From: Streptomyces sp. NBC_01264
GTDB lineage: Bacteria > Actinomycetota > Actinomycetes > Streptomycetales > Streptomycetaceae
Length of the DNA: 64,000 nucleotides
Direction of reading: 5' to 3'
NCBI RefSeq assembly: GCF_026340675.1
Contig: NZ_JAPEOX010000002.1
Span: 620,001 to 684,000 of the forward strand
Of the stretch, positions 29,404-52,585 are shown one piece after another (position 1 is the first letter of the stretch; each line of letters starts with the position of its first letter). The notes under the pieces were generated by a model that was not told the DNA's origin, ran no database searches, and saw only the letters and a list, made by a program, of their open reading frames with translations. Made by a program: the position numbers and the translations under genes.

Positions 29404-30003
29404 GTGAGTGTCCGAATTCAACCCTCCTCCCAGGTCGACGAGACGGCCGAACTCGGCGAGGGGACCACGATCTGGGATCTGGCGCAGGTGCGGGAGGACG
29501 CGACGCTCGGCCGCGACTGCATCGTGGGTCGTGGGGCGTACGTCGGTCCCGGCGTGCGGATCGGGGACAACGTCAAACTGCAGAACTACGCGCTGGTGTA
29601 CGAGCCCGCCGTACTCGGCGACGGGGTGTTCATCGGCCCGGCCGTGGTGCTCACCAACGACTTCTACCCGCGGGCCGTCGATCCCGACGGCCGCCAGAAG
29701 CGCGGCGGCGACTGGGAGGCGGCCGGGGTCGTCGTGGCCGAGGGGGCCTCCCTGGGCGCCCGGTCGGTGTGCGTCGCGGGGGTCCGGATCGGGCGGTGGG
29801 CCCTGGTCGCGGCCGGCGCGGTCGTGTCCCGGGACGTACCGGATTTCGCGCTCGTGGCCGGGGTGCCGGCCCGGCGCATCGGCTGGGTGGGCCGGGCGGG
29901 GGTGCGCCTTGTGGAACGTGACGGCGAGCCGGGCATCTGGGAGTGCCCGCGCACCGGCGCTCTGCACGACGAGACCGACGGAACCCTGGCCGAGCGCATC
30001 TGA
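29404..30003 (+). CDS. WbpD/WlbB-like UDP-sugar 3-N-acetyltransferase (left-handed beta-helix)
   Basis: This 199-residue protein starts at GTG 29404 after AAGGGG. It is built of hexapeptide repeats (IGDNVKLQNYALVYEPAVLGDGVFIGPAVVLTNDFYPRA; a second run at AEGASLGARSVCVAGVRIGRWALVAAGAVV). The closing DVPDFALVAGVPARRIGWVG is strikingly like WbpD and WlbB. Those enzymes N-acetylate the 3-amino group of UDP-GlcNAc(3NH2)A with acetyl-CoA. In this locus it is the first plus-strand gene of the polysaccharide region. It supplies the acetylation step missing from the dehydrogenase, aminotransferase and epimerase genes farther on. The specificity is inferred from family and context. Confidence 0.75.
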   Translation: MSVRIQPSSQVDETAELGEGTTIWDLAQVREDATLGRDCIVGRGAYVGPGVRIGDNVKLQNYALVYEPAVLGDGVFIGPAVVLTNDFYPRAVDPDGRQKRGGDWEAAGVVVAEGASLGARSVCVAGVRIGRWALVAAGAVVSRDVPDFALVAGVPARRIGWVGRAGVRLVERDGEPGIWECPRTGALHDETDGTLAERI

Positions 30004-30367
30004 CGCAACGTCGGCAATTTGGGTCAATGGCATTTCCTCAAAACCACAATCAACGAACATCCTTGGGCATACCTTGTCCCTGTACACGGGATCTGAGCAG
30101 GCAACAGGCTGTGTTCAGTGGGGGGTTGTACACGACGAGGGCAACCACGGACCAGGTGACGGAACGGCGCAGGACCATGCGCCCGTCCGCCGCCGCCGTC
30201 CGCGCGCGCCCCCATCCGGAATATCGCTGGAGGGGGATCCAGCGGTCCCGGACCGCTCGTGCCATCGGGGGGATCACACCGTAGGCACGCGCAGCGTCAT
30301 GCGCAGTCCCCTCGCCGGACGACGACCGCCGGGTCTGTCCTAGGAGCGATTTTCAGAGGGGGTAGGT
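30004..30367 (+). promoter_or_regulatory. Control region upstream of the plus-strand polysaccharide operon
   Basis: This 364-bp region has no convincing gene. It is less GC-rich at 30010-30140 and carries two copies of TGTACACG, at 30081-30088 and 30127-30134, 46 bp apart and in the same orientation. TTGTACAC or CTGTACAC may be operator sites. AGAGGGGG near 30354-30362 is the ribosome-binding site of the leader ORF that follows. Confidence 0.4.
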
Positions 30368-30445
30368 GTGTTGGAGCAGTACGGCTACAGCTCGGACATA
30401 CAGGGCGAGCAGGGCATGCGGGAAACCGAGGTGGGGACCCGGTGA
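30368..30445 (+). CDS. 25-residue leader ORF coupled to the toroid-protein gene
   Basis: GTG 30368 is preceded by AGAGGGGG at a normal distance and reads VLEQYGYSSDIQGEQGMR followed by ETEVGTR. It ends with TGA at 30443-30445, which overlaps the GTG start of the next gene (GTGA, 30442-30445). A ribosome-binding site plus a 4-bp overlap argues for real translation and for coupling of the downstream gene. The peptide is acidic and polar, with no hydrophobic segment and no run of a single amino acid that would mark an amino-acid attenuator. It is either a small functional protein or a coupling leader. Confidence 0.5.
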   Translation: MLEQYGYSSDIQGEQGMRETEVGTR

Positions 30446-31611
30446 CCGCCAGACGATTAGCAGCACTGGCCCAGGAAGACCCGTCGCTGCACGCCCTCGC
30501 CGAGCGGCTGCTCGCACTGGCCGAGGCGGGGCTGCCCGAGATGTACCTGCCGGGCGCGGAGACCTTCGTCTTCACCCGGGTGGGGACCGTCTCCCCCGAA
30601 GGCGCGAGGCGCGTGGAGCGGCGCGGGACCAGCACCCGGTACGCGGCCATCACCGCGCTGGGCGCACGGTTCCTCCCCGAGGAGCGGCAGCGCGCCCTCT
30701 TCGACGGCCGCACGGCCGGGGAGTTCACGGCGCTCCTGGTGGAGCGGCTGCCCGCGGTGACCAACCTCGGCGACGCCGCGCTCATCGCCTGGGCCGCGGC
30801 CGAGACCGGCCACCCCAAGCTCGCGGACGCCGTGGCCAGGGTGGCCGAACTGGACGTCCCCGGGCGTCCGCAGTACACGGTGGAGGCCGCCTGGGTGCTG
30901 TCCGCCCTCACCGCGGCCCGCGCCGCGGTGGACGTCGAGTACCGGCTCGTCGCCGCCCGCGACCGCCTGCTGGCGGCCAGGGTCGGGGACGGTCCGCTGT
31001 TCCCCCACGCCACCGGACCCGGGCTGGTCCCCGGGTACCGCTCCCACGTGGCCTGCTTCGCCGACCAGACCTATCCGCTCCAGGCACTGGCCCGGCTGCA
31101 CGCCAGTGCCCCGGATCCCCGCGCCCTCGCGGCCGCCGACGCCTGCGCCGCCCGGATCTGCGCCCTGCAGGGGGACGGCGGACAGTGGTGGTGGCACTAC
31201 GACGCCCGCACGGGCGGCGTGGTGGAGGGCTACCCCGTCTACAGCGTGCACCAGCACGCCATGGCCCCCACCGCCCTCTTCGACCTGGCCGAAGCGGGCG
31301 GCACCGACTTCGGCGCGGAGATCCGCCGGGGTCTGCGCTGGATGACGGAGGTGCCCGAGATCAGCGGGCCCGACGGGACCCCGCGCGAGTCCATGATCCG
31401 CGAGGAGTTCGGGGTCACCTGGCGCAAGGTCTACCGCGGCGATCCCGCCAAGGCCGTGCGCGCCGCCCGCGGACTCACCACCCGGGTCGCACCGCGGGCC
31501 CGGCTGGCCCCGCTCGACCGGATCTTCCGCCCCCTGGCGGTGGACCGCGAGTGCAGGCCCTACGAGTTCGGCTGGCTGCTCCACGCCTGGCTCGGGGGGC
31601 TCGGAGGATGA
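30442..31611 (+). CDS. Alpha/alpha-toroid protein of the polysaccharide locus (terpene-cyclase-like or epimerase-like fold)
   Basis: This 389-residue cytosolic protein starts at GTG 30442, overlapping the leader ORF. The sequence is almost wholly helical, with repeated helix pairs: AALIAWAAAETGHPKLADAV, AAWVLSALTAARAAVDVEY and PLQALARLHASAPDPRALAA. One QW-like motif is QGDGGQWWWHYDA, and a conserved-looking patch is GYPVYSVHQHAMAPTALFDL. This resembles alpha/alpha toroids seen in prenyltransferase/squalene-cyclase repeats and in sugar epimerases or lyases. The DxDD acid motif of class II terpene cyclases is absent. The GT26 gene overlaps its stop by 4 bp, so a role in polysaccharide or glycolipid precursor modification is more likely than terpene synthesis. 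I do not recognise a characterised homologue. Confidence 0.6.
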   Translation: MTARRLAALAQEDPSLHALAERLLALAEAGLPEMYLPGAETFVFTRVGTVSPEGARRVERRGTSTRYAAITALGARFLPEERQRALFDGRTAGEFTALLVERLPAVTNLGDAALIAWAAAETGHPKLADAVARVAELDVPGRPQYTVEAAWVLSALTAARAAVDVEYRLVAARDRLLAARVGDGPLFPHATGPGLVPGYRSHVACFADQTYPLQALARLHASAPDPRALAAADACAARICALQGDGGQWWWHYDARTGGVVEGYPVYSVHQHAMAPTALFDLAEAGGTDFGAEIRRGLRWMTEVPEISGPDGTPRESMIREEFGVTWRKVYRGDPAKAVRAARGLTTRVAPRARLAPLDRIFRPLAVDRECRPYEFGWLLHAWLGGLGG

Positions 31612-32387
31612 AGCACAGACAGTCCCTCTTCGGGGTGTCGCTCGACCCCCTGACCATGGACGAGACGGTCCAGCGCTGCCTCGACGCCGTCCAGCGCGGC
31701 GAACAGATCGAGATCGGCATGGTCAACGCCGCCAAACTGGTCAACATGCGCCGCGACCCCCGCCTCGCCGCGGCGGTCGCCGGCTGCGACCTGGTCCTGG
31801 CCGACGGCCAGGCCGTGGTCTGGGCCGGCCGCGTCCTGGGGGTCCGCCTGCCCGAACGGGTCGCGGGAATCGACCTGTTCATGCGGCTGCTGGCCGCGGC
31901 GGAGACCGCCGGGATCCCCGTCTACCTGCTCGGCGCCCGGCAGGACGTACTGGACCTCATGCTCGGCCGGATCGCCGAGCGGTTCCCCGCGCTGCGCGTG
32001 GCGGGCAGCCGCAACGGCTACTTCGAGGACTCCGAACAGGGCGGGATCGCCGACGCGGTGGCCTCGAGCGGGGCCCGGATGCTGTTCCTCGGCATGACCT
32101 CGCCCAAGAAGGAGATCTTCACCGCCGGCTACGGCAAGCGCACCGGCTCCCACGTGGTGCACGGCGTCGGCGGCTCCTTCGACATCCTGGCCGGCATCAC
32201 CAAGCGCGCCCCCCTGGTCTGGCAGCGGATGGGGCTCGAATGGTTCTACCGGACCCTCCAGGAACCGCGCCGCCTGGGCAAGCGCTACCTCACCACCAAT
32301 GCTGCCTTCCTCCTCATGACGGTCCGGGAACTCATCCGCCGCACACCGTCCACACCTCCTTCCGGTTCCGCGAACAGGAGTCACTGA
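31608..32387 (+). CDS. WecG/TagA/CpsF-family glycosyltransferase (GT26)
   Basis: This 259-residue protein has its ATG at 31608 overlapping the previous stop, with GGAGG-like TCGGAGG before it. Characteristic segments are VNAAKLVNMRRDPRLAAAVAGCDLVLADGQAVVWAGRVLG, RVAGIDLFMRLL, IPVYLLGA, FLGMTSPKKEIF and GVGGSFDILAGITKRAPLVWQRMGLEWFYRTLQEPRR. The last is the typical C-terminal membrane-associating motif. GT26 enzymes add ManNAc or ManNAcA-type sugars to a lipid-linked first sugar. With UDP-sugar dehydrogenase and 2-epimerase genes next to it, transfer of a mannosaminuronic-acid-type residue is plausible. Confidence 0.9.
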   Translation: MKHRQSLFGVSLDPLTMDETVQRCLDAVQRGEQIEIGMVNAAKLVNMRRDPRLAAAVAGCDLVLADGQAVVWAGRVLGVRLPERVAGIDLFMRLLAAAETAGIPVYLLGARQDVLDLMLGRIAERFPALRVAGSRNGYFEDSEQGGIADAVASSGARMLFLGMTSPKKEIFTAGYGKRTGSHVVHGVGGSFDILAGITKRAPLVWQRMGLEWFYRTLQEPRRLGKRYLTTNAAFLLMTVRELIRRTPSTPPSGSANRSH

Positions 32388-33643
32388 TGCGCGTCGTCGT
32401 CGTGGGACAGGGATACGTCGGCCTTCCGCTGGCCATCAGGGCCGCCGAGGTCGGACACCAGGTGGTCGGCTACGACGTGGACGCCCGGCGGGTCAAGAGC
32501 CTCGCCGCCGGCGAGTCGTACGTGGAGGACGTCTCCTCCGCGCGGCTGGGCAAGGCGCTGGAACTGGGCACGTACCAGGCCAGTGACCAGGCCCGGGACT
32601 GCGGCGGCTTCGACGTCGCGGTCGTCACCGTCCCGACCCCCCTGCAGGACGGTGCCCCCGACCTGCGCTACATCGAGGAGTCCGCGCACACGCTGGCCCG
32701 GTTCCTGCGGCCGGGAGCCACCGTCGTCCTGGAGTCGACCACCTACCCCGGTACCACCGAGGAGCTGTTCGGCCCGATCCTGGAGGACGGCTCGGGCCTC
32801 ACGGCCGGCGTGGACTTCCACCTCGGCTACAGCCCCGAACGCATCGACCCCGGCAACAAGGTGTGGGGCTTCCAGCAGACGCCGAAGGTGGTCTCCGGCG
32901 TCAACGCCCTCTCGCTCAAGGCCGTGGAGACCTTCTACGCGGGCCTCGTCGACACCACGGTGCCGGTGCGCTCCCCCAAGGAGGCCGAGCTGGCGAAGCT
33001 GCTGGAGAACACCTTCCGGCACGTGAACATCGCCCTGGTCAACGAGATAGCGATGTTCGCCCGGCACCTCGACATAGACGTGTGGCAGACCATCGAGGCC
33101 GCCTCCAGCAAGCCGTTCGGCTTCATGAAGTTCACCCCGGGCCCCGGCGTCGGCGGGCACTGCCTGCCCATCGACCCCTCGTACCTGTCGTGGCGGGTGC
33201 AGCGCGAACTCGGCCAGAACTTCCGGTTCGTGGAACTGGCCAACGACATCAACAGCCACATGCCCGAGTACGTGGCGCGCCGCGTCATGGACGCGCTCAA
33301 CGCCAAGCGCCGCTCGGTCAACGGCTCCCGGATCCTGCTGCTGGGGCTGGCGTACAAGAAGAACACCGGCGACGCCCGGGAGTCTCCTGCCGTACGCGTG
33401 TCCCAGCTGCTCCTGGACATGGGCGCCAAGGTGCGCGCGGCCGATCCCCACGTCGTGGAGAGCATCAAGGTCGACGCGCGCCTCTCGCGGGTGGAGCCGA
33501 CCCGCAAGGAGCTGGCCGCCGCCGACGTGGTCGTCCTGCTCACGGACCACGACTCCTTCGACTACCCGATGATCACCGAGCACGCCTCGCTGATCCTCGA
33601 CTGCCGCAACCGGCTGTCGGGACCCACCGTGGAGGTGCTCTGA
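32387..33643 (+). CDS. Nucleotide-sugar 6-dehydrogenase (WbpA/WecC type)
   Basis: This 418-residue protein starts at ATG 32387 (TGATG overlap with the GT26 stop), with AGGAG upstream. The N-terminal Rossmann fold reads VVVVGQGYVGLPLAIRAAEVGH. The catalytic cysteine is Cys259 in GVGGHCLPIDPSYLSW, with KLLENTFRHVNIALVNE before it and GLAYKKNTGDARESPA in the C-terminal domain. FMKFTPGPGVGGHCLP and the length fit UDP-HexNAc dehydrogenases (WbpA on UDP-GlcNAc, WecC on UDP-ManNAc) better than UDP-glucose dehydrogenases. It oxidises C6 twice with NAD. Step 1 of the proposed UDP-ManNAc(3NAc)A pathway. Confidence 0.9.
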   Translation: MRVVVVGQGYVGLPLAIRAAEVGHQVVGYDVDARRVKSLAAGESYVEDVSSARLGKALELGTYQASDQARDCGGFDVAVVTVPTPLQDGAPDLRYIEESAHTLARFLRPGATVVLESTTYPGTTEELFGPILEDGSGLTAGVDFHLGYSPERIDPGNKVWGFQQTPKVVSGVNALSLKAVETFYAGLVDTTVPVRSPKEAELAKLLENTFRHVNIALVNEIAMFARHLDIDVWQTIEAASSKPFGFMKFTPGPGVGGHCLPIDPSYLSWRVQRELGQNFRFVELANDINSHMPEYVARRVMDALNAKRRSVNGSRILLLGLAYKKNTGDARESPAVRVSQLLLDMGAKVRAADPHVVESIKVDARLSRVEPTRKELAAADVVVLLTDHDSFDYPMITEHASLILDCRNRLSGPTVEVL

Positions 33644-33647: not shown

Positions 33648-34775
33648 ATGCCCAGAATCATCTGCGTGGCCGGAGCCCGGCCCAACTACATGAAGATCAA
33701 GCCGGTGATGGACGCGCTGGAGGCGCGCGGCGCGGAGGTCGTCCTCGTCCACACCGGCCAGCACTACGACGAGTCCATGAACGACGTCTTCTTCCGCGAC
33801 CTCGGCATCCGCTCCCCCGACCGCCATCTGGGAGCCGGGTCCGGCAGCCACGCCGTCCAGACCGGCCGGGTGATGGAGGCCTTCGAACCGCTGCTCGAAG
33901 AGCTGGTCCCGGACGCGGTCGTGGTGGTCGGGGACATCAACTCCACCCTGGCCTGCGCCCTGGTCACCGCCAAGGCCGGTCCGCTGCTGGCCCATGTGGA
34001 GGCGGGTCTGCGCAGCCGGGACTGGAGCATGCCCGAGGAGGTCAACCGGGTCGCCACCGACCGGATCAGCGACTACCTGCTGGCCCCCTCCCCCGACGCC
34101 GCCGCGAACCTGCGGTCGGAGGGGTACCGGGAGGACCAGATCCACGTCGTCGGCAACGTCATGATCGACACCCTGTTCGCCAACCTGGACCGGGCCCGGC
34201 GCTCCGACGTCCTCGACCGCTACGGGCTCACCCGCGGCGGGTACGGCCTGGTCACCCTGCACCGGCCGGCCAACGTGGACGACCCGGACGCCCTGCGCGG
34301 CCTGCTGAAGGCACTGGGCGAGATCGCGGGCCGCTGCCCGCTGCTGCTGCCGGTGCACCCCCGCGCGGCCGAACGGCTGTCCGAGATCGGCGTCCCCGGC
34401 GGCATCCGGCTGGTGCCGGCCGCCGGATACCTCGATTTCATCGCCCTGCAGGACTCCGCCCGCGTGGTGCTCACCGACTCCGGGGGCATCCAGGAGGAGA
34501 CCACCGCGCTCGGCGTGCCCTGCGTGACCCTCCGGGAGAACACCGAGCGCCCGATCACCGTCGAGCAGGGCACCAACGTCCTGGCGGGCACCGACCCGGA
34601 CCGCATCACGGCCACGGTGCACCGGGTGCTCGACGATCCGCCCGCGCCCCGCTGCCCCGAGCTGTGGGACGGCCGCGCGAGCGAGCGCATCGCGCAGGTG
34701 CTCCTCGAGGGCGGGAGCGCGGCGACCCGGCCGCGGCCCACCGACCTCGTCGCGGGCACCGTGCCCGTCGTCTGA
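33648..34775 (+). CDS. UDP-GlcNAc 2-epimerase family enzyme (WecB/WbpI type)
   Basis: This 375-residue protein starts at ATG 33648, four bases after the dehydrogenase stop. The GT-B-fold non-hydrolysing epimerase motifs are GARPNYMKIKPVMDAL, VHTGQHYDESMND, HVEAGLRSRDWSMPEEVNR, LVTLHRPANVD, LPVHPRA and DSGGIQEETTALGVPCVTLR with ENTERP. WecB makes UDP-ManNAc. WbpI homologues epimerise UDP-GlcNAc(3NAc)A. The sequence alone cannot separate the two; the rest of the locus favours WbpI-like chemistry. Confidence 0.9.
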   Translation: MPRIICVAGARPNYMKIKPVMDALEARGAEVVLVHTGQHYDESMNDVFFRDLGIRSPDRHLGAGSGSHAVQTGRVMEAFEPLLEELVPDAVVVVGDINSTLACALVTAKAGPLLAHVEAGLRSRDWSMPEEVNRVATDRISDYLLAPSPDAAANLRSEGYREDQIHVVGNVMIDTLFANLDRARRSDVLDRYGLTRGGYGLVTLHRPANVDDPDALRGLLKALGEIAGRCPLLLPVHPRAAERLSEIGVPGGIRLVPAAGYLDFIALQDSARVVLTDSGGIQEETTALGVPCVTLRENTERPITVEQGTNVLAGTDPDRITATVHRVLDDPPAPRCPELWDGRASERIAQVLLEGGSAATRPRPTDLVAGTVPVV

Positions 34776-34867: not shown

Positions 34868-35623
34868 ATGGACCTCGCGGAGATCTGGCGGGTCATGCGC
34901 AGGCGCTGGTACGTGCTGCTGCCCGGGCTGCTGCTCACGGCCGCGCTCATCACCGGCGTGTACCTGCTGGTCCCGGTGGAGTACCGGTCGCAGAGCACCG
35001 TGTCGCTCCTGAACTCGAAGAAGGCCACGGTCGCCTTCGACGGCAACCCCTTCCTGAGCACGCAGGCCTCGCTCACCGGCATGGCCGACGGGCTGGCCCG
35101 CAACCTGAACTCCGATGATTCCAAGGCCGACCTCAAGGCCCAGGGAGTCACCGGCGTGTACGAGGCGAAGATCGCCGACAACGCCCAGGGACCCTTCATG
35201 TGGCTGAGCGTCACCGGCACCGACCCGGCCTCCGTCCTGGAGTCCTGCAAGGTCTTCACCGCGTACACCGAGAAGCGGCTGCGGGAGTTCCAGGCCCAGC
35301 AGTCGGTGACTCCCGACGCGATGATCCGCATGACGACGCTCGTACCGCCGCAGAAGCCCGAGCCGCAGACGAAGACCCGGCTCCAGTACCTGGTGATGGC
35401 GGCGGCGCTGGGCTTCGTCCTCAGCATGGTGGCCACCTTCTTCGTCGAGGCCCGGCGCCGCAAGGCCGACAAGCCCGGGCGGCGCAAGCCCGTGGAAGGC
35501 GATCAGGGTCCGCCCGAGGACCCCGACTCCGCCGACGTCAACATCGGCGCCGCCGACCCGACGGCGACCATGGCGCTCAAGGTCCTGCCCTCGTCGGCCT
35601 TCCCCTCCAAGGCGCCCCGGTGA
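34868..35623 (+). CDS. Wzz-like chain-length determinant protein
   Basis: This 251-residue membrane protein starts at ATG 34868, with AAGAAGG seven bases upstream. A first transmembrane segment (WYVLLPGLLLTAALITGVYLL) follows the typical RVMRRR motif. A periplasm-side-type region of about 140 residues (EYRSQSTVSLLNSKK, PFMWLSVTGTDPASVLE) follows. A PxxP-flanked second segment (VPPQKPEPQTKTRLQYLVMA, then AALGFVLSMVATFFVEARRR) leads to a short cytosolic tail without a tyrosine-kinase domain. Its start overlaps no gene, but its stop overlaps the flippase start (GTGA). It is one of three Wzz-like domains in the locus. Confidence 0.85.
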   Translation: MDLAEIWRVMRRRWYVLLPGLLLTAALITGVYLLVPVEYRSQSTVSLLNSKKATVAFDGNPFLSTQASLTGMADGLARNLNSDDSKADLKAQGVTGVYEAKIADNAQGPFMWLSVTGTDPASVLESCKVFTAYTEKRLREFQAQQSVTPDAMIRMTTLVPPQKPEPQTKTRLQYLVMAAALGFVLSMVATFFVEARRRKADKPGRRKPVEGDQGPPEDPDSADVNIGAADPTATMALKVLPSSAFPSKAPR

Positions 35624-38306: not shown

Positions 38307-39128
38307 ATGCGCCGCATCGCCCGGGCCCCCTGGGAGCTGCTCAAGCGGGCCTTCGGCTGGCTGGTGCTCTTCGAGGCCAGGAACAAGCTCGTGCTGGCCC
38401 CCTCCGCCCTGCGGCTGCGCCGGTTCGAGAACGCCGAGACCACTCGGCTCGGATCGCTCCTGGAGCGGCCGCCGTCCGCCCTGGTGGCCACCGTGATCGC
38501 CACCCACCGGCGTCCCGAGGCCCTGCGCGAGGCCGTGCGCTCGGCCCTGGCGCAGACCGTGTTCGACCAGGTGGTCCTCGTCGTGGACGACGGCGCCGGG
38601 CTGCCCGAACTCCCCGCGGATCCACGGCTCTTCGCGGTGTCGCTGGCCCGCAACACGGCCACCGCCGGAGTGGTGCGCAACGTAGGGATACGGCTGAGCC
38701 GCTCGCGGTACGTGGCCTTCCTGGACGACGACAACCTCTGGGAGCCCGACCATCTGGAGCAGGCCCTGACGGTCCTGGAGTCCCCGGGCGGACCGGACGC
38801 GGTGTACACGGCGCTGCGCAGGGTGCTGCCCGACGGGACCCAGCGGGACGTGCTGTCGGTGCCCTTCGACCGGCGCCGCTCCGCGCACGAGGCCTTCCTG
38901 GACACCAATGCCTTCGTGGCGCGCCGCACCCCGGCCCTGCACTTCAGCCGCCTGCGGCGGACCCCCGAGGTGCTGCCCCGGGAGGACTGGGAGCTCGTAC
39001 GCCGCTACAGCCGGCGCCACGAGGTCCGCCACCTGCCCCGTCCCACCGTCCGCTACCTGGTCAACCCGGAGAGCTTCTGGACCGCGTGGGACGGGTCGGC
39101 ACCGGCCGGCCCGTCCCCCGCCTCCTAG
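38307..39128 (+). CDS. Family 2 glycosyltransferase
   Basis: This 273-residue protein starts at ATG 38307 after GAGAGGA. A helical N-terminal 55 residues precede the GT-A domain. Motifs are LVATVIATHRRPEALREAVRSAL, LVVDDGAGLPELP and the DXD-like FLDDDNLWEPDHL, with LPREDWELVRRYSRRH near the acceptor side. It lacks transmembrane helices. It is the last gene of the plus-strand operon and converges with the GT gene at 39139 only 10 bp away, with no obvious terminator between. Confidence 0.85.
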   Translation: MRRIARAPWELLKRAFGWLVLFEARNKLVLAPSALRLRRFENAETTRLGSLLERPPSALVATVIATHRRPEALREAVRSALAQTVFDQVVLVVDDGAGLPELPADPRLFAVSLARNTATAGVVRNVGIRLSRSRYVAFLDDDNLWEPDHLEQALTVLESPGGPDAVYTALRRVLPDGTQRDVLSVPFDRRRSAHEAFLDTNAFVARRTPALHFSRLRRTPEVLPREDWELVRRYSRRHEVRHLPRPTVRYLVNPESFWTAWDGSAPAGPSPAS

Positions 39129-42110: not shown

Positions 42111-42192
42111 GAACGCTCCCTCGCAACTGCCCGGGAACCGTTGGCGTGTTGGCCGGCGTCCTGGGAAGATCGAACACGACGGAAGGAATCCT

Positions 42193-46900: not shown

Positions 46901-47287
46901 CGCCGGATTGCCGCTCTGCGGGAAGTTGGCCGGGTAGGTCTGGGCGGCCTGGGCCGCGGTCGACATCAGCCGGGCCCCGTCACCTCCGTAGTGGCCGAGC
47001 CGGTAGACCGAGACCTTGTAGGCGGTCGGCGACTGGACCTTGAACTGCAGGGTCTCGCCCGCCTGCACGCTCTCCTTGGCCGGGAAGCCCTTGATGTCGC
47101 CGTAGGCGCTGGGTGCGAACCAGTCGGACATCGGTGTGCCCGCCTTCGAGTTCTCGCACACGATCGCATTGGAGCCGGGGCCGCACGGGTCCGCCGCGAC
47201 CGCCACCGATGGCGGCAGCGCCGCCGCCATCAGGGCCGCCACCACGGTGAAGAGCCCGTACCGCAGCAGCCTTGTCCGTCTGTTCAT
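43988..47287 (-). CDS. Giant secreted protein: DMFase-beta-like domain, Ig-like domains and two DUF4082 modules
   Basis: This is a 1099-residue protein. ATG 47287 follows GAGG. A signal peptide of about 31 residues precedes the mature form. Residues about 35-520 resemble the large-subunit-like domain of N,N-dimethylformamidase (GDIKGFPAKESVQAGETLQF, YKVSVYRLGHYGGDGARL, SGHDEYWTQDQFTNALNAR, YFAGNEVFWKTRL). This family is often seen in secreted actinobacterial proteins near polysaccharide genes. Then come an Ig-like module (ADHTGPVITVTSPAANATVP), DUF4082 from about 645 (CPCTVWPAAAVPG), a Big_5-like module (about 815-905), and a second DUF4082 from about 918 (CPCTLWGPNATP). DUF4082 is thought to be carbohydrate related. 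It probably acts on or binds the exported polymer. Enzymatic activity is unproven. Confidence 0.8.
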   Translation of the reverse strand: MNRRTRLLRYGLFTVVAALMAAALPPSVAVAADPCGPGSNAIVCENSKAGTPMSDWFAPSAYGDIKGFPAKESVQAGETLQFKVQSPTAYKVSVYRLGHYGGDGARLMSTAAQAAQTYPANFPQSGNPAACTKKASTGLVDCGNWPVTANWTVPSDAVSGLYIVNFDQADGNGVMPYPFVVRNDSSHSDIVVQTSDQTWQAYNNYGGQDLYDGAGPAPDGRAYEVSYNRPMDIGGENGIYGSEYQMVAWLERNGYDVSYMSGIDMSTKGATQLQNHKVFMSSGHDEYWTQDQFTNALNARHAGVNQTYFAGNEVFWKTRLAPSIDGANTANRTLVCYKETKLSFPQPNGIPDPSGIWTGTFMDPASATNGRPYQPQNQVTGSLFSVNGYRSDAITVPGAYAKMRLWRNTTVANLTPSQTATFPVGTLGYEWDSDVEDAARPAGQIAMSSTTVDITDGKYRLDYGNTYGNGTATHSLVAFRDQTSGALVFGSGTVQWSWGLTNMPTGNPDDAVVTEDKRMQQATVNIFADMGVQPKSLQSNLLTATASADHTGPVITVTSPAANATVPALRPVTITGTASDSGGGVVARVEVSTDGGTTWKATTGVGSWSYKWTPTTPGSASIKVRAVDDSVNIGATTTVPLTVGPQQCPCTVWPAAAVPGTVNAGDGSAVELGVKIRSSVPGSITGVRFYKSPANTGTHTGSLWSNSGQRLATGTFTNETASGWQQLNFSSPIPVKANTTYIASYFAPNGGYSYDTTFASADAGLAPFTALKSGTDGGNGVYRYSGTGGFPSTASSGSNYWVDAVLDTATASTTPPTVTSTSPQSAATGTAITATVKATFNAAVDADTLVFTVKDPGGATVPGSKVLDVSNSATFTPSSELALGTTYTASVQVADLWGNAMAAPVTWTFTTSTSPPAVNCPCTLWGPNATPTTANVNDDTNSVELGTRFQSTVGGYVTGITFYKGPGNTGTHTGSLWSANGTLLATGTFGSETLSGWQQLHFTTPVAVTANTEYVASYHAPNGKYAVDGGYFGAAHRSYPLVAPADGGGAGNGNGLYKYGSATVFPNNTFGSVNYWVGPVFTTTPPAPLTEGSTEVPGQ

Positions 47288-47331: not shown

Positions 47332-48447
47332 TCAGCGCAGCGCTGCTGAGAGCGCGACCACGACCCGCTGCTGTTGGGCGGCGGTGATCTGCGGGAAGAG
47401 AGGGAGGGAGAGCATCCGGTCGGCCGCCAGCTCCGCGTGCGGGAAGGCCCCGCGGCCGCGGCCGAGGTGGGCGAAGGCCGGAGTGAGGTGGACCGGGGCC
47501 GGATAGTGCACGCCCGCGCCGATGCCCTCGGCGTTGAGCTTGCCGACGACCGCGTCGCGGTCCGCTCCGCTGACCCGGATGACGTACAGGTGCCAGACGT
47601 GCACGTTGCCCGGAGCCGTGACCGGCAGGGTGAGGCGGCCGGTGGCCGCCAGGTCCGCGAGCAGCGCGTCGTAGCGGGCGGCGGCGGCCCGGCGGGCCTC
47701 GTTCCCCCCGGCGAGCCGGGCCAGTTTGGCCCGCAGCACGACGGCCTGCAGACCGTCGAGCCTGCTGTTGAAACCGGCCACGTCGTGCCGGTACTTGGCG
47801 ACGCCGCCGTGGTTGGCCAGCGCCCGGACCAGGTCGGCGGCCTCCTCGTCGTCGGTCACCACCGCGCCGGCGTCCCCGTAGGCGCCGAGGTTCTTGCCCG
47901 GGTAGAAGCTGGTCGCGGCGATCCCGCCGCTGCCGGGGGTGCGGCCCTCGCGGGAGGCGCCCTGGCTCTGCGCGGCGTCCTCGACGATCTTCGCGTACGA
48001 GGGCAGGCCCGCGGCCAGCGCGCCGGTGTCGGCGCACTGCCCGTACAGGTGGACCGGGACCACCGCGCGGGTGGCCGGGGTCACCGCGTCGAGCGCGGCC
48101 TGCGGGTCCAGCAGCAGGGTGTCGGGGAGGCAGTCGGCCAGCACCGGCTTGGCGCCGATCCGGGCGACGGCTCCGGCGGTGGCGATGAAGGTGTTCGCGG
48201 GCAGGACGACCTCGTCGCCGACGCCCACTCCGCTCGCCCGCAGGGCCAGTTCCAGGGCGTCGGTGCCGTTGGCCACGCCGACGCAGTGTCCGACCCCGGC
48301 GAAGGCCGCGTACTCGCGCTCGAAGGCCCGGACCTCCTCGCCGCCGATGAAGGCGGTGTCGGCCAGGACCCGGTCGAATCCCGCACGTAATTCGTCCGCG
48401 ACCTCGGCGTGCGCTGCCTTCAGGTCGACGAGCGGTATCTGGTTCAT
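47332..48447 (-). CDS. DegT/DnrJ/EryC1 sugar aminotransferase (WbpE/WlbC-like)
   Basis: This 371-residue protein starts at ATG 48447, overlapping the acyltransferase stop (48444-48447). The opening IPLVDLKAAHAEVADEL, VGVANGTDALELALRASGVG and VEDAAQSQGA are followed by the PLP lysine in FYPGKNLGAYGDAGAVVT (about residue 185) and GFNSRLDGLQAVVLRAKL. This subgroup (WlbC, WbpE, QdtB, FdtB) makes 3-amino sugars from 3-keto nucleotide sugars using glutamate. In this locus it would convert the product of the Gfo/Idh dehydrogenase into UDP-GlcNAc(3NH2)A. Confidence 0.85.
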   Translation of the reverse strand: MNQIPLVDLKAAHAEVADELRAGFDRVLADTAFIGGEEVRAFEREYAAFAGVGHCVGVANGTDALELALRASGVGVGDEVVLPANTFIATAGAVARIGAKPVLADCLPDTLLLDPQAALDAVTPATRAVVPVHLYGQCADTGALAAGLPSYAKIVEDAAQSQGASREGRTPGSGGIAATSFYPGKNLGAYGDAGAVVTDDEEAADLVRALANHGGVAKYRHDVAGFNSRLDGLQAVVLRAKLARLAGGNEARRAAAARYDALLADLAATGRLTLPVTAPGNVHVWHLYVIRVSGADRDAVVGKLNAEGIGAGVHYPAPVHLTPAFAHLGRGRGAFPHAELAADRMLSLPLFPQITAAQQQRVVVALSAALR

Positions 48448-49223
48448 GCGGCTGTGCTCCCCATCCGTGTCTCCGGCCCGCGGCCGGTCTCCAACTCATC
48501 GGCCCGCAGCTCGTCGAGCGCCGGGCCCCCCGCCTCGCGCAGCCGGCGGGCGGGGCTTCCGGCCCACACCTCGCCGGCCGGTACGTCGGCCAGGACCGTG
48601 CTTCCCATCCCGGTCAGCGACCAGGCGCCGACCTCGGTGTACTCCCGGACCAGCGCGCCGGCGCCCACGTAGGCCCCGCGCCCCAGCCGGACCCCGCCCC
48701 CGAGGCGGACCCCGGAGGCCAGGGTGGCGAAGTCCCCGACCTCGTCGTCGTGGGTGAGGACCACGTGCGGCATGACCGCCACATGGGCCCCGACCCGTAC
48801 CGCGGCCGTCAGTACGCAGTGCGCGAGGAGCACCGTGCCCGGCCCGAGGACCGAGGAACCGGAGAGCGCCGCCGTGGGGTGGACCACGGTGGCGTACCGG
48901 CTCTCGGGCAGGGCCAGGCGCCGCACCAGGCGGGCCCGTACCCCGTAGTCGCGGGGGCTGCCGACGCAGACCACCGCGCGGGCGTCCGGGCGTTCGTGCA
49001 CCAGCGCGCTGCCGCCCAGCACGGGAACCCCGTCGACCTCCCGCCCGTGCAGGGCCGGATCGTCGTCGAGGTGCCCGGCGAGCCGCCAGCGCGGGACCCG
49101 GTCCGCCGCCAGGTCGGCGGCGGCCGCGTCCCGTACGGCCTGGGCCGTCTCCCGGGCGAAACCGCCCGCGCCGACGATCAGCAGGTCCTCGGTCGCCGCG
49201 GCCCCGGTGACGGCGGCGGTCAT
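48444..49223 (-). CDS. NeuD/PglD-like sugar O/N-acyltransferase
   Basis: This 259-residue protein starts at ATG 49223, overlapping the previous stop by 4 bp. The N-terminal Rossmann-like domain (DLLIVGAGGFARETAQAVRD, LAGHLDDDPALHGREVDGVPVLGG) binds the nucleotide sugar. From about 120 a left-handed beta-helix follows (ATVVHPTAALSGSSVLGPGTV, VAVMPHVVLTHDDEVGDFATL with the probable catalytic His, SLTGMGSTVLADVPAGEVWAG). PglD-like enzymes acetylate 4-amino sugars made by the aminotransferase type encoded just upstream, so this pair probably works together. Confidence 0.85.
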   Translation of the reverse strand: MTAAVTGAAATEDLLIVGAGGFARETAQAVRDAAAADLAADRVPRWRLAGHLDDDPALHGREVDGVPVLGGSALVHERPDARAVVCVGSPRDYGVRARLVRRLALPESRYATVVHPTAALSGSSVLGPGTVLLAHCVLTAAVRVGAHVAVMPHVVLTHDDEVGDFATLASGVRLGGGVRLGRGAYVGAGALVREYTEVGAWSLTGMGSTVLADVPAGEVWAGSPARRLREAGGPALDELRADELETGRGPETRMGSTAA

Positions 49224-50395
49224 CCGTCGGCCTGTTCGCGCAGCACCGCCACCACCCGGTCCTGCTGCTCCTCGGTCATGGTGTGGAACAGCGGCAGGAT
49301 CAGCGAGTCGCGGGTGATCCGCTCGGTCACCGGCAGCGCCGCCGCACCGTGACCGGCGTACGCCGGCTCCAGGTGGGAGGCCATGATCCCGCGCCGGGCC
49401 GAGATCCCGGCCTCGGCGAGCACCGCGAGCAACTCGTCGCGGCCGACGGGGAAGTCCTCGGCCAGGAGCACCCAGTACGACTGGAAGTTTCCCTCGCCGT
49501 GACCGGGGTCCCGGACCGGGGTCAGACCACGGACACCGGCGAGGAGCCGCGCGTAGCGGGCGGCGAGGAACCGCCTGCGGGCCACGATCTCGTCCAGTTT
49601 GCCCAGTTGCACCAGGCCCACCGCGGCCTGGATGTCGGTCATCCGGTAGTTGTAGCCGACCTCGAGGTAGCTCTCGGCGATCGGCTTGCTGCTCGCGTGC
49701 CGCTGCGCGGCGGACACGTTCATGCCGTGCTCGCGCAGCCGGCGCAGCCGCTCGGCCCAGGCGGCGTCGTCCGTGGTCACCATGCCGCCCTCGCCGGTGG
49801 TGATCACCTTGCGGGGGTGGAAGGACCAGGCGGCCAGCAGCGCCCCCTGGCCGACCGACTTGCCGCCCACGGTGGCGCCGATGCCGCAGGCGGCGTCCTC
49901 CACCAGGGCGATGCCCCAGTCGGCGCAGGCGGCGCGCAGGGCGTGCACGTCGGCCGGGACCCCGCCCTGGTGGACGGCGATGACCGCCTTGGTGCGCGGG
50001 GTGCGGACGGCGTCCACGGTGGCTGCGGTCAGGTTGCCGGTGGCCTCCTCGACGTCCGCGAACACCGGGTGGGCGCCCACGTAGCGCACGGCGTTCGCCG
50101 TGGCGATGAAGGACAGGGAGGGGATGACGACCTCGTCGCCCGGGGCGAGGTCGAGCGCGATCAGCGAGAGGTGCAGGGCGGTGGTGCACGAGCTCACCGC
50201 GATGCCGTGCTCGGCGCCCACGCGCTCGGCGAAGGCCCGTTCGAACGCGGCGACCCGGGGTCCCTGGGCCACCCAGCCGGACAGGACCGCGTCGGCGGCG
50301 GCCCGCGCCTCTTCCTCACCGAGCCACGGGATCATGACGGGGATCCGGGCGGGGGTGGCGGGAGCGGCCCCGGCCCCGGCGTCCTGGGCGCTCAT
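49220..50395 (-). CDS. DegT/DnrJ/EryC1 sugar aminotransferase (PglE-like)
   Basis: This 391-residue protein starts at ATG 50395, overlapping the epimerase stop by 4 bp. IPVMIPWLGEEEARAAADAVLSGWVAQG, VSSCTTALHLSLIALDL, VVIPSLSFIATANAVRYVGA and LVEDAACGIGA precede the PLP lysine Lys196 in SFHPRKVITTGEGGMVTT. GYNYRMTDIQAAVGLVQL is a further family motif. It differs from the 47332 enzyme and resembles PglE and ArnB-type enzymes that aminate C4 of 4-keto sugars. A 4,6-dehydratase to supply such a substrate is not obvious in the window. The first of two aminotransferases in this operon. Confidence 0.85.
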   Translation of the reverse strand: MSAQDAGAGAAPATPARIPVMIPWLGEEEARAAADAVLSGWVAQGPRVAAFERAFAERVGAEHGIAVSSCTTALHLSLIALDLAPGDEVVIPSLSFIATANAVRYVGAHPVFADVEEATGNLTAATVDAVRTPRTKAVIAVHQGGVPADVHALRAACADWGIALVEDAACGIGATVGGKSVGQGALLAAWSFHPRKVITTGEGGMVTTDDAAWAERLRRLREHGMNVSAAQRHASSKPIAESYLEVGYNYRMTDIQAAVGLVQLGKLDEIVARRRFLAARYARLLAGVRGLTPVRDPGHGEGNFQSYWVLLAEDFPVGRDELLAVLAEAGISARRGIMASHLEPAYAGHGAAALPVTERITRDSLILPLFHTMTEEQQDRVVAVLREQADG

Positions 50396-51396
50396 CGGCC
50401 GGCTCCGGCGGCCGTCGCGGCCTCCGCGTCCGCGGCGCGCTCGGCCCGCCACCAGTCGACCAGGTCCCGCAGCCCGCTGCGCAGGTCGATCCCGGCCGTG
50501 AAGCCGAGGCGCTCGGCGGCCTGCGAGGTGTCGGCGAGCCGGCGGGTCACCCCGTTCACGGCGCGGGCCGGCCCGTGCTCCGGCGTCAGGCCCTCGGCGC
50601 CCATGGCCTCCAGGAGCCCGTTGGCCAGCTCGAGCAGGCTGGTCTCGGATCCGCTCGCGACGTTGAACACCTCGTCGGTCAGGTCCGATTCGGCGGCCAG
50701 GAGGTTGGCCCTGGCGATGTCCCGGACGTCGACGAAGTCCATGGTCTGGGTGCCGTCGCCGAGGATCAGCGGCGGTTCGCCCGCGGCGATCCGCTCCATC
50801 CACCGGATCAGCACCTCGGTGTAGAGCCCGTGGATGTCCATCCGGGGGCCGTACACGTTGAAGTAGCGCAGTGCGACGTAGTCCAGCCCGTACATGGCGT
50901 GGAAACTGCGCAGCACGCCTTCGTTGAAGGCCTTCGCGGCCCCGTAGAAGGTGTCGTTGTTGTACGCGTGGTGGCGCTCGGTGGTCGGGAAGGACTCGGC
51001 CATCCCGTAGACCGAGGCCGAGGACGAGGCGATGACCTTGCCCACACCGGCGGCCGCGGCGGCCTCCAGCACGTTGAACGTCCCGTCGACCATCACCTCG
51101 TTGGCCAGCCGCGGCTCCTCGGCGCACTGGGTGATCCGGATCGCCGCCAGGTGGAAGACGAAGTCGGCTCCCTCGGTCGCCTTGCGCACCGCGGATATGT
51201 CCCGGATATCGCCCTCGACGAGGTCCACGACCCCGCTCGGCAGGGCGCGGGCCAGGTTGGCGGTGCGTCCCCGTACGAAGTTGTCGAGCACGACGATCTC
51301 GCGCGCCCCGTTGTCCACCAGCAGGTCCACCAGGTGCGAGCCGATCGTGCCCGCTCCGCCGGTGACCAGAATCCTCTTGCCTCGTACGCTGCTCAA
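50392..51396 (-). CDS. NAD-dependent epimerase/dehydratase (extended SDR)
   Basis: This is a 334-residue protein. A TTG start at 51396 is preferred: the frame has no ATG or GTG nearer the Rossmann motif, and GGGGCAGGG lies upstream. Motifs are KRILVTGGAGTIGSHLVDLL, VEGDIRDIS and FHLAAIR, catalytic Ser in ASSSASVYG, Tyr151/Lys155 in FYGAAKAFNEG, and RYFNVYGPRMD. FVDVRDIARANLLA and NVASGSETS complete the fold. This is UDP-GlcNAc/UDP-glucose 4-epimerase-like. It could be the 4-epimerase or a dehydratase feeding the PglE-like enzyme; the sequence does not decide. Confidence 0.8.
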   Translation of the reverse strand: MSSVRGKRILVTGGAGTIGSHLVDLLVDNGAREIVVLDNFVRGRTANLARALPSGVVDLVEGDIRDISAVRKATEGADFVFHLAAIRITQCAEEPRLANEVMVDGTFNVLEAAAAAGVGKVIASSSASVYGMAESFPTTERHHAYNNDTFYGAAKAFNEGVLRSFHAMYGLDYVALRYFNVYGPRMDIHGLYTEVLIRWMERIAAGEPPLILGDGTQTMDFVDVRDIARANLLAAESDLTDEVFNVASGSETSLLELANGLLEAMGAEGLTPEHGPARAVNGVTRRLADTSQAAERLGFTAGIDLRSGLRDLVDWWRAERAADAEAATAAGAGR

Positions 51397-51478
51397 CGCC
51401 CTGCCCCTACTGAGTCGGTCATGGTGTTCCCTGCTGTGCCCGGCGCGCCGCACGCGGCCCGGACGGCGTTCGGGGCGC

Positions 51479-52585
51479 TCAACGGCCGGTGCGCAGTCCG
51501 ACGACGGCGCCCTTGAACTCCAGGCTGCGGGAGGCCGCTTCGAGGATGTCGAGGACCTGGAGCCCGGCCCGCCCGTCGGTGAGCGGCGCCCGTCCCGTCC
51601 TGATCGACGCGGCGAACTCCTCGACCATGCTGCGCAGGGCCTCCTTCTCGCCGAGCGCGGGTGCCACCATGTCGCCGGTCCGGTAGGAGACGAGCATGTC
51701 GCGGCGCTCGTCCGCGCCGATCTCCTGCGGGGCCGTGAGGTCGACGCCCCGGTCGAACACCGCGACGCGCTGGGTGGGGTTGAGGTCGTCCCACACCAGG
51801 GTGCGCTTGGAGCCGCCGACCATCGTGGTGCGGACCTTCACCGGGGAGAGCCAGTTGACGTGGACGTGCGCGATGGCGCCCGTGTTCAGCTGGAGCGTCA
51901 GATAGGCCACGCAGGACTGGCCGGCGCCTATCGGGTCGGCCCCGTGGGCGGCGACCGCGACCGGGTGGACGTTGTCCGGGAGGATGAAGTCGAGCACCGA
52001 GAGGTCGTGGGGGGCCAGGTCCCACAGGACGTCGATGTCCTTCTGGACCAGTCCGAGGTTGATCCTGACCGAGTCCACGAACTGGATGTCGCCGAGTTCG
52101 CCGGAGCGGACCATGTCCCGGATGCGGGCCACGGCCGGGGTGTAGCAGTAGGTGTGGTCGCACATCAGGGTGAGACCGCGTTCCTCGGCCTCGTTCACCA
52201 GCCGCAGCCCGTCCTCGTAGGTGGCGGCGAGCGGCTTCTCCACGAGGACGTGCTTGCCGGCGCGCAGGGCGGCCAGCGCCACGTCCAGGTGGGTACCGGC
52301 CGGGGTCGCCACGGCGACGGCCTTCACCTCGGGGTCGGCCAGCACCGCCGCGTAGTCCGCGGTCGCCTGGACCGTCGAGTAACCGCCGAGCACCTGCCGG
52401 GCCCGGTCCACGTTCAGATCACAGAGCCAGCGGAGCCTGAACTCCGGACTGGACTGGAAGTTGCGGACGAGATTGGGGCCCCAGTAGCCCGCTCCGACGA
52501 CGGCGACCCCTAACGGCTCGGTCCGTCCGCCACCCGCACCTGCGCCCGCGGCGTCCCGCCCGGCGTCCTTCGCGGTGTCCTTCAC
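51479..52585 (-). CDS. Gfo/Idh/MocA oxidoreductase (WbpB/WlbA-like)
   Basis: This 368-residue protein starts at GTG 52585 after GGAAAGGG. A Gly/Ala-rich lead precedes the Rossmann motif LGVAVVGAGYWGPNLVRNF. Next are VAVATPAGTHLDVALAALRAGKHVLVEKP (the EKP lysine motif of the family) and LMCDHTYCYTPAVARIRDMV. VLWDLAPHDLSVLDFILP carries the likely catalytic His in APHDL. WbpB/WlbA oxidise UDP-GlcNAcA at C3 with NAD. As first gene of the long minus-strand operon and alongside WbpA-, WbpE-, WbpD- and WbpI-like genes, it fills step 2 of the proposed pathway. Confidence 0.85.
   Translation of the reverse strand: MKDTAKDAGRDAAGAGAGGGRTEPLGVAVVGAGYWGPNLVRNFQSSPEFRLRWLCDLNVDRARQVLGGYSTVQATADYAAVLADPEVKAVAVATPAGTHLDVALAALRAGKHVLVEKPLAATYEDGLRLVNEAEERGLTLMCDHTYCYTPAVARIRDMVRSGELGDIQFVDSVRINLGLVQKDIDVLWDLAPHDLSVLDFILPDNVHPVAVAAHGADPIGAGQSCVAYLTLQLNTGAIAHVHVNWLSPVKVRTTMVGGSKRTLVWDDLNPTQRVAVFDRGVDLTAPQEIGADERRDMLVSYRTGDMVAPALGEKEALRSMVEEFAASIRTGRAPLTDGRAGLQVLDILEAASRSLEFKGAVVGLRTGR

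What the first reader, a model, noticed from the sequence alone, without database searches (positions are those of the whole stretch)
29404..52585. All five steps to UDP-ManNAc(3NAc)A are present but split across both ends of one polysaccharide locus
WbpA-like dehydrogenase (32387-33643), WbpB-like Gfo/Idh (51479-52585), WbpE-like aminotransferase (47332-48447), WbpD-like acetyltransferase (29404-30003) and WbpI-like 2-epimerase (33648-34775) all occur in the 24-kb region. This pathway for 2,3-diacetamido-2,3-dideoxy-mannuronic acid is known mainly from Gram-negative O-antigens. Its presence in a streptomycete Wzx/Wzy locus, with genes on opposite strands, would be unusual. A second PglE/PglD-like pair could make another diamino sugar. 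The assignment of each enzyme is by family; the complete pathway is inference.
Basis: partly seen in the sequence, partly recalled or inferred. Interest (0 to 1): 0.7.

Follow-up and report, generated by a model that had tools for sequence, protein, structure and literature searches.

The report
Two sugar modules, not one pathway
The five genes are real, but comparison with many relatives suggests that this Streptomyces polysaccharide locus combines two separately inherited sugar-making gene sets rather than one five-step route to a rare diamino uronic acid, a sugar already known from Streptomyces cell walls.

Summary
In detail: dehydrogenase (DH), 2-epimerase (Epi) and a WlbB/WbpD-like acetyltransferase (AcT1) lie on +, a Gfo/Idh enzyme and a WbpE-like aminotransferase (AT1) on -, and a second aminotransferase/PglD-like pair exists. 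The single-pathway reading holds poorly. (1) Epi has the arginine that contacts the C3' hydroxyl in UDP-GlcNAc epimerases (53 of 53 sequences of this locus type, 50 distinct), whereas Streptomyces teichuronic-acid (utr) epimerases (31 of 31, 29 distinct) and the crystallised UDP-GlcNAc3NAcA epimerase have tryptophan. (2) Outside Streptomycetaceae the genes separate: 20 of 20 Epi neighbourhoods lack Gfo, AT1 and AcT1 (19 keep DH); 20 of 20 Gfo neighbourhoods lack DH and Epi. (3) A clustered five-gene ManNAc3NAcA set exists elsewhere, the utr cassette, which shares closely only the acetyltransferase (77% identical). Best reading: a Wzx/Wzy exopolysaccharide locus with a UDP-ManNAcA pair (Epi, DH) and a separate amino-sugar module (Gfo, SDR, AT2, AcT2, AT1, plus AcT1). 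ManNAc3NAcA is not unusual in Streptomyces: S. griseus makes it (PMC13274773). Products are inferred; nothing was assayed. A reordered five-enzyme route in Streptomyces is not excluded.

The parts
29404..30003 (+). AcT1: WlbB/WbpD-type (UtrJ-like) N-acetyltransferase without a PglD_N domain
   Evidence: 76.8% identical to the acetyltransferase of the S. anulatus L27-side locus
30442..31611 (+). conserved protein of unknown function ('Toroid' is only my working label), start uncertain
   Evidence: coding frame; best Pfam match E 1.3; conserved in related loci
31608..32387 (+). WecG/TagA/CpsF-family glycosyltransferase, start uncertain
32387..33643 (+). DH: nucleotide-sugar 6-dehydrogenase, proposed to act with Epi in making UDP-ManNAcA
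   Evidence: in 19 of 20 class-level Epi neighbourhoods
33648..34775 (+). Epi: non-hydrolysing 2-epimerase with Arg at the Trp307 position of the T. thermophilus UDP-GlcNAc3NAcA epimerase
34868..35623 (+). Wzz-like protein (weak match)
   Evidence: Wzz E 0.0089, below cut-off
35680..37158 (+). Wzx-type flippase; true start probably somewhat upstream
37164..38286 (+). putative beta-helix protein (weak match), start uncertain
   Evidence: Beta_helix E 0.02, below cut-off
38307..39128 (+). GT2 glycosyltransferase (GTa)
39139..40029 (-). GT2 glycosyltransferase (GTb); true start probably somewhat beyond 40029
40056..42089 (-). Wzy_C (O-antigen ligase/polymerase-type) membrane protein, start uncertain
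42190..42888 (+). second Wzz-like protein (weak match), start uncertain
   Evidence: Wzz E 0.00028, below cut-off
42945..43991 (-). GT2 glycosyltransferase (GTc), start uncertain
43988..47287 (-). large protein with DMFA2_C, two DUF4082 stretches, Big_5 and Big_7, start uncertain
47332..48447 (-). AT1: DegT aminotransferase of the 3-amino-sugar group
48444..49223 (-). AcT2: PglD/NeuD-type acetyltransferase, start uncertain
49220..50395 (-). AT2: DegT aminotransferase nearer to 4-amino-sugar enzymes (TlmJ, ArnB, perosamine synthetase), start uncertain
50392..51453 (-). SDR: extended NDP-sugar epimerase-like enzyme, motif SSASVYG with YGAAK; true start probably below 51453
51479..52585 (-). Gfo: Gfo/Idh/MocA oxidoreductase; best curated family is the archaeal UDP-GlcNAc 3-dehydrogenase (below cut-off)
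52968..53879 (+). GT2 glycosyltransferase (GTd), start uncertain
53926..55371 (+). MFS transporter, conserved with the locus

Best explanation
This is a Wzx/Wzy-type exopolysaccharide locus of Streptomycetaceae that carries two separately inherited nucleotide-sugar modules. Module A (Epi and DH, beside a WecG-family transferase) converts UDP-GlcNAc to UDP-ManNAcA, by 2-epimerisation of a sugar that still has its C3 hydroxyl and by C6 oxidation; the order of the two steps is open. Module B (Gfo, SDR, AT2, AcT2, AT1, helped by AcT1 from the + strand) makes a 3-acetamido and probably a 4-acetamido sugar: Gfo oxidises C3, AT1 aminates it and AcT1 acetylates it, giving a UDP-2,3-diacetamido-hexose such as UDP-GlcNAc3NAc; SDR may epimerise C4; AT2 and AcT2 would make a 4-acetamido sugar. 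Shown here: gene families, the residue pattern, and conservation and separation of the modules. Inferred: every substrate and product.
For: Residue test: at T. thermophilus position 307, Arg in 53 of 53 type I epimerases (window plus 52 loci; 50 distinct sequences), Trp in 31 of 31 utr-type ones (29 distinct), Arg in 19 of 20 class-level relatives with 1 unread (numbering checked against the alignment; meaning of the residue from PMC10622841). The T. thermophilus enzyme is nearer to three utr-type epimerases (48-49%) than to ours (44%). Separation: 20 Epi neighbourhoods have DH in 19 and Gfo, AT1 or AcT1 in 0; 20 Gfo neighbourhoods have SDR in 19, AT2 in 17, AT1 in 16 and DH or Epi in 0. With up to about 30 kb of flank, 8 of 11 Gfo loci have no DH- or Epi-family hit. 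Of 13 genomes with the close Epi-DH pair, 0 have AcT1 at E<=1e-35 and 10 are not among the Gfo matches (E<=1e-80). In four genomes a utr-type set (AcT1, aminotransferase, 3-dehydrogenase, Trp307 epimerase, dehydrogenase) is clustered at another place. G430 has DUF4082, Wzy_C, WecG, Epi and DH on a 30-kb contig without a Gfo, AT1 or AcT1 hit. The WecG-family protein scores a little higher to the ManNAcA-transferase model (140.6 bits) than to the ManNAc-transferase TarA model (117.5), both below cut-off.
Against: In Streptomycetaceae the modules stay together: all 52 type I loci read have DH and Epi in the stretch, so joint use is possible. AcT1 is closest to enzymes of a uronic-acid pathway (3mqg; utr acetyltransferase), and EPS and utr copies differ at group level only by conservative residues, which also fits one shared uronic substrate. 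AcT1 sits in the + strand run with DH and Epi, not with Gfo. The best PDB score of Epi is the UDP-GlcNAc3NAcA epimerase. G373 has distant DH and Epi relatives (35%) in its Gfo locus, and G427 and G215 a distant DH (27-29%). Positions 96 (Val) and 18 (Ile) of Epi match neither pattern of PMC10622841, utr epimerases have Leu18, and distant class-level epimerases combine Tyr96 and Ala18 with Arg307, so these two positions are not clean markers. DH similarity does not discriminate. Some neighbourhoods are short contigs (down to 7.7 kb), where absence says little.
Confidence: 0.58

Rival explanations
1. Canonical five-step route: DH=WbpA, Gfo=WbpB, AT1=WbpE, AcT1=WbpD, Epi=WbpI, making UDP-ManNAc3NAcA with the epimerase last.
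For: All five families are present and stay together in type I loci; WbpE and 3mqg (recalled as WlbB) are among the best solved relatives of AT1 and AcT1; the best PDB score of Epi is the T. thermophilus UDP-GlcNAc3NAcA epimerase, 285 bits against 274 for a UDP-GlcNAc epimerase, 4neq.
Against: Arg instead of Trp at position 307 in 53 of 53; separation in 20 of 20 and 20 of 20 neighbourhoods; the utr-type set with Trp307 fills this role in actinomycetes; Gfo is far from 3q2k, recalled as a WlbA structure (49 bits).
Confidence: 0.12
2. Same five enzymes in another order: Epi and DH first make UDP-ManNAcA, then Gfo, AT1 and AcT1 work on the manno sugar, giving UDP-ManNAc3NAcA.
For: Fits Arg307 (C3 hydroxyl still present when Epi acts) and the constant presence of both modules in type I loci.
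Against: The Gfo module stands without DH and Epi in other families; AcT1 would have to accept a manno substrate, although its utr relatives also occur in loci where no epimerase was found within the stretch, in line with S. antibioticus, which lacks utrH and makes GlcNAc3NAcA (PMC13274773, section 10).
Confidence: 0.12
3. DH, Gfo, AT1 and AcT1 make UDP-GlcNAc3NAcA without epimerisation, while Epi supplies UDP-ManNAc to the WecG/TagA-family transferase.
For: S. antibioticus makes a GlcNAc3NAcA polymer without utrH (PMC13274773, section 10); the WecG/TagA family includes ManNAc transferases (TarA model); AcT1 is close to the utr acetyltransferase.
Against: Epi and DH go together in 19 of 20 neighbourhoods, and 8 of 11 extended Gfo loci have no DH-family hit; the WecG-family protein scores higher to the ManNAcA-transferase model than to TarA, though both are below cut-off.
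Confidence: 0.12

Closest known systems
Streptomyces utr/teichuronic-acid locus (S. griseus UtrA, B, D, H, J; PMC13274773)
   Same: Same enzyme families for a diacetamido sugar; the acetyltransferase is 76.8% identical between our locus and the S. anulatus one.
   Different: The other four enzymes are only 31-41% identical. The utr locus lies near ribosomal protein L27 (motif in 28 of 41 utr-type stretches and 0 of 37 type I stretches), and its epimerases have Trp307. Our locus has Wzx/Wzy, two aminotransferases and two acetyltransferases.
Pseudomonas aeruginosa / T. thermophilus WbpA-B-E-D-I
   Same: AT1 and AcT1 resemble WbpE and WlbB.
   Different: Gfo and Epi lack the hallmarks tested; the genes are on two strands and belong to two modules.
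WecB-WecC and archaeal MMP0705-MMP0706 UDP-ManNAcA pair (PMC2952790, passages)
   Same: Adjacent 2-epimerase and 6-dehydrogenase, Arg in the epimerase, high scores to 4r16 and 4neq (recalled as P. horikoshii and M. jannaschii enzymes).
   Different: Substrates unassayed here; Val96 and Ile18 are atypical.
GnnA-GnnB type 3-oxidation and amination of UDP-GlcNAc
   Same: Proposed chemistry of Gfo and AT1 (recalled; only a paper listing was seen).
   Different: No sequence comparison with GnnA or GnnB was made.

Membership tests
UDP-ManNAc3NAcA (Wbp) pathway | 2-epimerase with Trp in place of the C3-OH-binding Arg (position 307 of T. thermophilus) | tested here: not met
   Arg in window Epi and in 52 of 52 type I loci; Trp in 31 of 31 utr-type. 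The rule rests on one crystallised enzyme and the utr loci; P. aeruginosa WbpI was not compared
UDP-ManNAc3NAcA (Wbp) pathway | 3-aminotransferase of WbpE type | tested here: met
   AT1: 2oga (recalled as DesV) 304 bits, QdtB 279, WbpE 267, ArnB 179
UDP-ManNAc3NAcA (Wbp) pathway | N-acetyltransferase of WlbB/WbpD type | tested here: met
   AcT1: 3mqg (recalled as WlbB) 143.8 bits, next 85.4
UDP-ManNAc3NAcA (Wbp) pathway | 3-dehydrogenase of WlbA/WbpB type | tested here: not met
   3q2k (recalled as WlbA) 49 bits, others up to 91; best curated family archaeal UDP-GlcNAc 3-dehydrogenase, 151 bits, cut-off 450. The utr-locus enzyme is not close to 3q2k either (52 bits), so this test does not separate the two loci
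UDP-ManNAc3NAcA (Wbp) pathway | 6-dehydrogenase acting on UDP-GlcNAc | tested here: inconclusive
   best match 4r16, a UDP-ManNAc(A) dehydrogenase, but a utr-locus dehydrogenase also matches it best
UDP-ManNAc3NAcA (Wbp) pathway | the five genes are inherited together | tested here: not met
   together in the type I loci read; outside, 0 of 20 Epi and 0 of 20 Gfo neighbourhoods hold both modules
UDP-ManNAcA (WecB-WecC) module | epimerase and dehydrogenase paired | tested here: met
   19 of 20, 52 of 52 type I
UDP-ManNAcA (WecB-WecC) module | epimerase keeps the C3-OH arginine | tested here: met
UDP-ManNAcA (WecB-WecC) module | activity on UDP-GlcNAc and UDP-ManNAc | not testable with these tools
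   needs an assay
utr teichuronic-acid locus | position near ribosomal L21/L27 and wall teichoic acid genes | tested here: not met
   no L27 motif in the stretches of 37 type I loci; the window itself was not scanned for it, and L21 and TagF were not looked for

The most novel reading that the evidence does not exclude
In actinomycetes the 3-acetamido group is installed on neutral UDP-GlcNAc first (3-dehydrogenase, aminotransferase, AcT1), and C6 oxidation and 2-epimerisation are optional later tailoring, the reverse of the Pseudomonas order. One acetyltransferase type then serves both the teichuronic-acid set and this exopolysaccharide module. This fits AcT1 occurring in loci with no dehydrogenase nearby and both 3-dehydrogenases scoring best to the archaeal UDP-GlcNAc 3-dehydrogenase model, though below its cut-off.
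Probability: 0.3. Interest if true: 0.5.

Novelty: new member of a known kind. Interest (0 to 1): 0.35.

Why it matters
It warns against assembling a pathway from enzyme families that share a locus. It separates two Streptomyces loci that share an acetyltransferase type, and offers a candidate one-residue marker (Arg or Trp) to tell C3-hydroxyl from C3-acetamido 2-epimerases in actinomycetes. It also names a conserved exopolysaccharide locus whose sugars could be tested. PMC13274773 (section 9) suggests that umbrella-toxin lectins may recognise further surface carbohydrates in strains without teichuronic-acid genes; whether this polymer is one is untested.

Tried and rejected
Family scores for DH: given up as a marker, because a utr-locus dehydrogenase also scores best to the UDP-ManNAc(A) dehydrogenase 4r16. 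Psychrobacter-type 2,3,4-triacetamido-pentose route with the SDR as decarboxylase (route recalled; passages of PMC8040287 seen): set aside because the SDR has SSASVYG in 24 of 25 relatives above 60% identity and SSASIYG in 1, not the acidic motif that I recall for dehydratases and decarboxylases. SDR as 4,6-dehydratase: set aside on the same motif; its best solved relatives include several named as epimerases, but a dehydratase family model (LegB, 148 bits) and GalE (147.5 bits) score alike, both below cut-off. A link to the Actinoplanes imp and wps clusters (PMC13390465, PMC12691653, passages): no shared gene set seen in those passages. DUF4082 in papers: one paper, on a Methylococcus secretome. 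Structure of the unknown protein at 30442-31611: job interrupted, not accepted again.

Rows left out: L059, L061, L090 and L092 (AcT1 without the other locus genes) and L070 (AcT1 59%) were left out of the group comparison. Two of these genomes (G140, G141) have no Gfo or Epi match at E<=1e-60. Three epimerase sequences were not read by the text pattern; one search read them by alignment except 1 of the 20 class-level ones. Neighbourhoods were chosen, not random: 20 of 55 non-type-I Epi matches (one of them, G067, is in the same genus) and 20 of 22 non-type-I Gfo matches (G337 and G380 not fetched as Gfo loci). Counts of loci include repeated contigs; distinct sequences are given.


Full report
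What is there. Coding frames and Pfam scans give the locus: on + AcT1, an unknown protein, a WecG-family transferase, DH, Epi, a Wzz-like protein, Wzx, a beta-helix-like protein and a GT2; on - a GT2, Wzy_C, a GT2, a DMFA2_C/DUF4082 protein, AT1, AcT2, AT2, SDR and Gfo; a second Wzz-like frame on + at 42190-42888; and a GT2 and an MFS protein on + beyond Gfo. Several starts are uncertain.

Family evidence. Structure codes are from the calls; where the call gives no enzyme name, my name is recalled. AT1 is nearest to 2oga (recalled DesV), QdtB and, after 7b0d, WbpE (304, 279 and 267 bits). AT2 is nearest to TlmJ, ArnB and perosamine synthetase (231-233 bits; WbpE 135). AcT1 is nearest to 3mqg (recalled WlbB; 144 bits, next 85). 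DH is nearest to 4r16, a UDP-ManNAc(A) dehydrogenase (252 bits). Epi is nearest to the T. thermophilus UDP-GlcNAc3NAcA epimerase (285 bits), with the UDP-GlcNAc epimerase 4neq almost level (274 bits). Gfo has no close solved relative (best 91 bits; 3q2k, recalled WlbA, 49); its best curated model is the archaeal UDP-GlcNAc 3-dehydrogenase, far below cut-off.

Two kinds of Streptomyces locus share AcT1. AcT1 has a match (E<=1e-25) in 59 of 199 genus genomes, the window's own included. I fetched neighbourhoods for 31 of the other 58. In 15 the locus is ours (type I), as far as the stretch reaches. In 13 AcT1 is 76-79% identical while the other enzymes found nearby are only 28-41% identical (type II). 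L059 and L061 have AcT1 alone, and L070 has AcT1 at 59%. A six-residue L27 motif is within the stretch of 28 of those 41 and of 0 of the 37. PMC13274773 (passages; sections 9, 10 and 45) describes the S. griseus utr locus beside L21/L27, whose polymer contains ManNAc3NAcA by NMR, and assigns utrD, A, B, J and H to the five steps by modelling. It says that S. anulatus lacks a predicted epimerase found in S. griseus (which one is not said in the passage); our S. anulatus locus L111 has no Epi or SDR match. I therefore take type II as the utr locus. S. griseus itself was not fetched, so this rests on position, gene content and named relatives. The own genome has one AcT1 match only.

Residue test of the epimerase. 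PMC10622841 (passages; sections 2 and 10) states that enzymes acting on UDP-GlcNAc have an arginine at the C3' hydroxyl and that the UDP-GlcNAc3NAcA enzyme has Trp307 there. The HMMER alignment puts our Arg at that column. By alignment it is Arg in 53 of 53 type I sequences (window included), Trp in 31 of 31 type II, and Arg in 19 of 20 class-level relatives with 1 unread. The 52 type I loci give 49 distinct sequences besides the window's, and the 31 type II loci give 29. Epimerases of the utr-type sets in G324, G380, G333 and G237 have Trp in 4 of 4. The other two positions are less clean: residue 96 is Val in 53 of 53 type I and Tyr in 31 of 31 type II, but also Tyr in 10 of 10 distant class-level relatives with Arg307; residue 18 is Ile in 51 of 53 type I, Leu in 31 of 31 type II and Ala in T. 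thermophilus. I read Arg307 as a C3 hydroxyl on the substrate and leave C6 open.

Separation outside the family. In 246 class-level genomes, 58 match Epi (E<=1e-90) and 25 match Gfo (E<=1e-80), each count with the window's own genome and two other type I genomes. I fetched 20 Epi and 20 Gfo neighbourhoods. Epi: DH in 19 of 20; Gfo, AT1 and AcT1 in 0 of 20. Gfo: SDR 19, AT2 17, AT1 16, AcT2 11, AcT1 family 11, DUF4082 15, DH or Epi 0 of 20. A few are short contigs. For 11 Gfo loci flank was added: 8 of 11 have no DH- or Epi-family hit, G373 has both at 35%, G427 and G215 a distant DH (27-29%); many of the other exopolysaccharide genes recur. Among 38 chosen genomes, 13 have the close Epi-DH pair (DH 63-67%). 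None of the 13 has AcT1 at E<=1e-35, though G215 and G252 have AcT1-family proteins at 39-44% in their separate Gfo loci. Of the 22 with Gfo, 10 have no DH match at E<=1e-60. In G324, G380, G333 and G237 AcT1 lies with utr-type aminotransferase, 3-dehydrogenase, epimerase and dehydrogenase within about 8-15 kb, and in three of these a second AcT1 lies on the contig of the Gfo locus, about 25 kb from Gfo. In the same four genomes a DH of about 50-52% also lies on that utr contig, roughly 15-25 kb away, and in two of them (G324, G380) an Arg307 Epi too. G430 has the exopolysaccharide genes with Epi and DH and no Gfo, AT1 or AcT1 hit on its 30-kb contig.

Within Streptomycetaceae the picture is tighter. 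All 52 type I loci have DH and Epi in the stretch. Gfo lies in the same locus in the seven genomes whose stretches reach it, and within about 18-25 kb of Epi or AcT1 in G189, G133 and G413. In G012 Gfo is 3.3 Mb from AcT1, perhaps a rearrangement or an assembly matter. So joint use there cannot be ruled out, and I keep 0.24 for the two routes to ManNAc3NAcA.

AcT1. A tree of 116 AcT1 proteins puts 49 type II copies in one branch (95/95). The four lone copies fall among type I with weak support, and type I is not resolved as one group; some class-level rows have long branches. EPS (60) and utr (58) copies, repeats included, differ at group level in only seven conservative positions at the 75% threshold used. 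AcT1 therefore probably sees the same amino sugar in both systems. Since 8 of 11 extended Gfo loci show no dehydrogenase of these families, that sugar may be the neutral one, which would reverse the Pseudomonas order. This is inference and is given as the novel case.

Verdict. Genes confirmed; one five-step pathway not supported; two modules best supported at 0.58. Interest 0.35: a useful correction and a testable marker, built from known enzyme kinds. I saw no description of this locus in the listings (Streptomyces, exopolysaccharide, Wzx, Wzy, gene cluster; 15 of 21 listed; 7 papers; 12 of 14 listed) or (1 paper); that is a limited search.

Noticed in passing
30442-31611 (+): Protein without a Pfam match, conserved beside WecG in type I loci and in some class-level exopolysaccharide loci (40-79% identity to ours in the 12-sequence alignment A1), with an invariant GxxGQWWWHYD-like region. 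Function unknown; the structure job failed.
   Followed up: partly
43988-47287 (-): Large DMFA2_C/DUF4082/Big protein that travels with the Gfo module (15 of 20 neighbourhoods); the one paper holding the word DUF4082 is unrelated by its title and abstract.
   Followed up: partly
L059, L061, L090, L092: AcT1 genes in Streptomyces with none of the other locus genes in the stretch; in two of these genomes no Gfo or Epi match at E<=1e-60. Possibly relics.
   Followed up: partly
L034 / G012: Type I locus split: AcT1 to Wzz at one place and Gfo 3.3 Mb away.
   Followed up: partly
L129 and L137: Streptomyces sp. 1-11 carries both a type I locus and a utr-type locus.
   Followed up: no
28544-29221 (-): CBM2-domain protein beside AcT1, matched only in five of the type I loci nearest to ours plus one more (L031, L033, L034, L038, L071, L072).
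   Followed up: no
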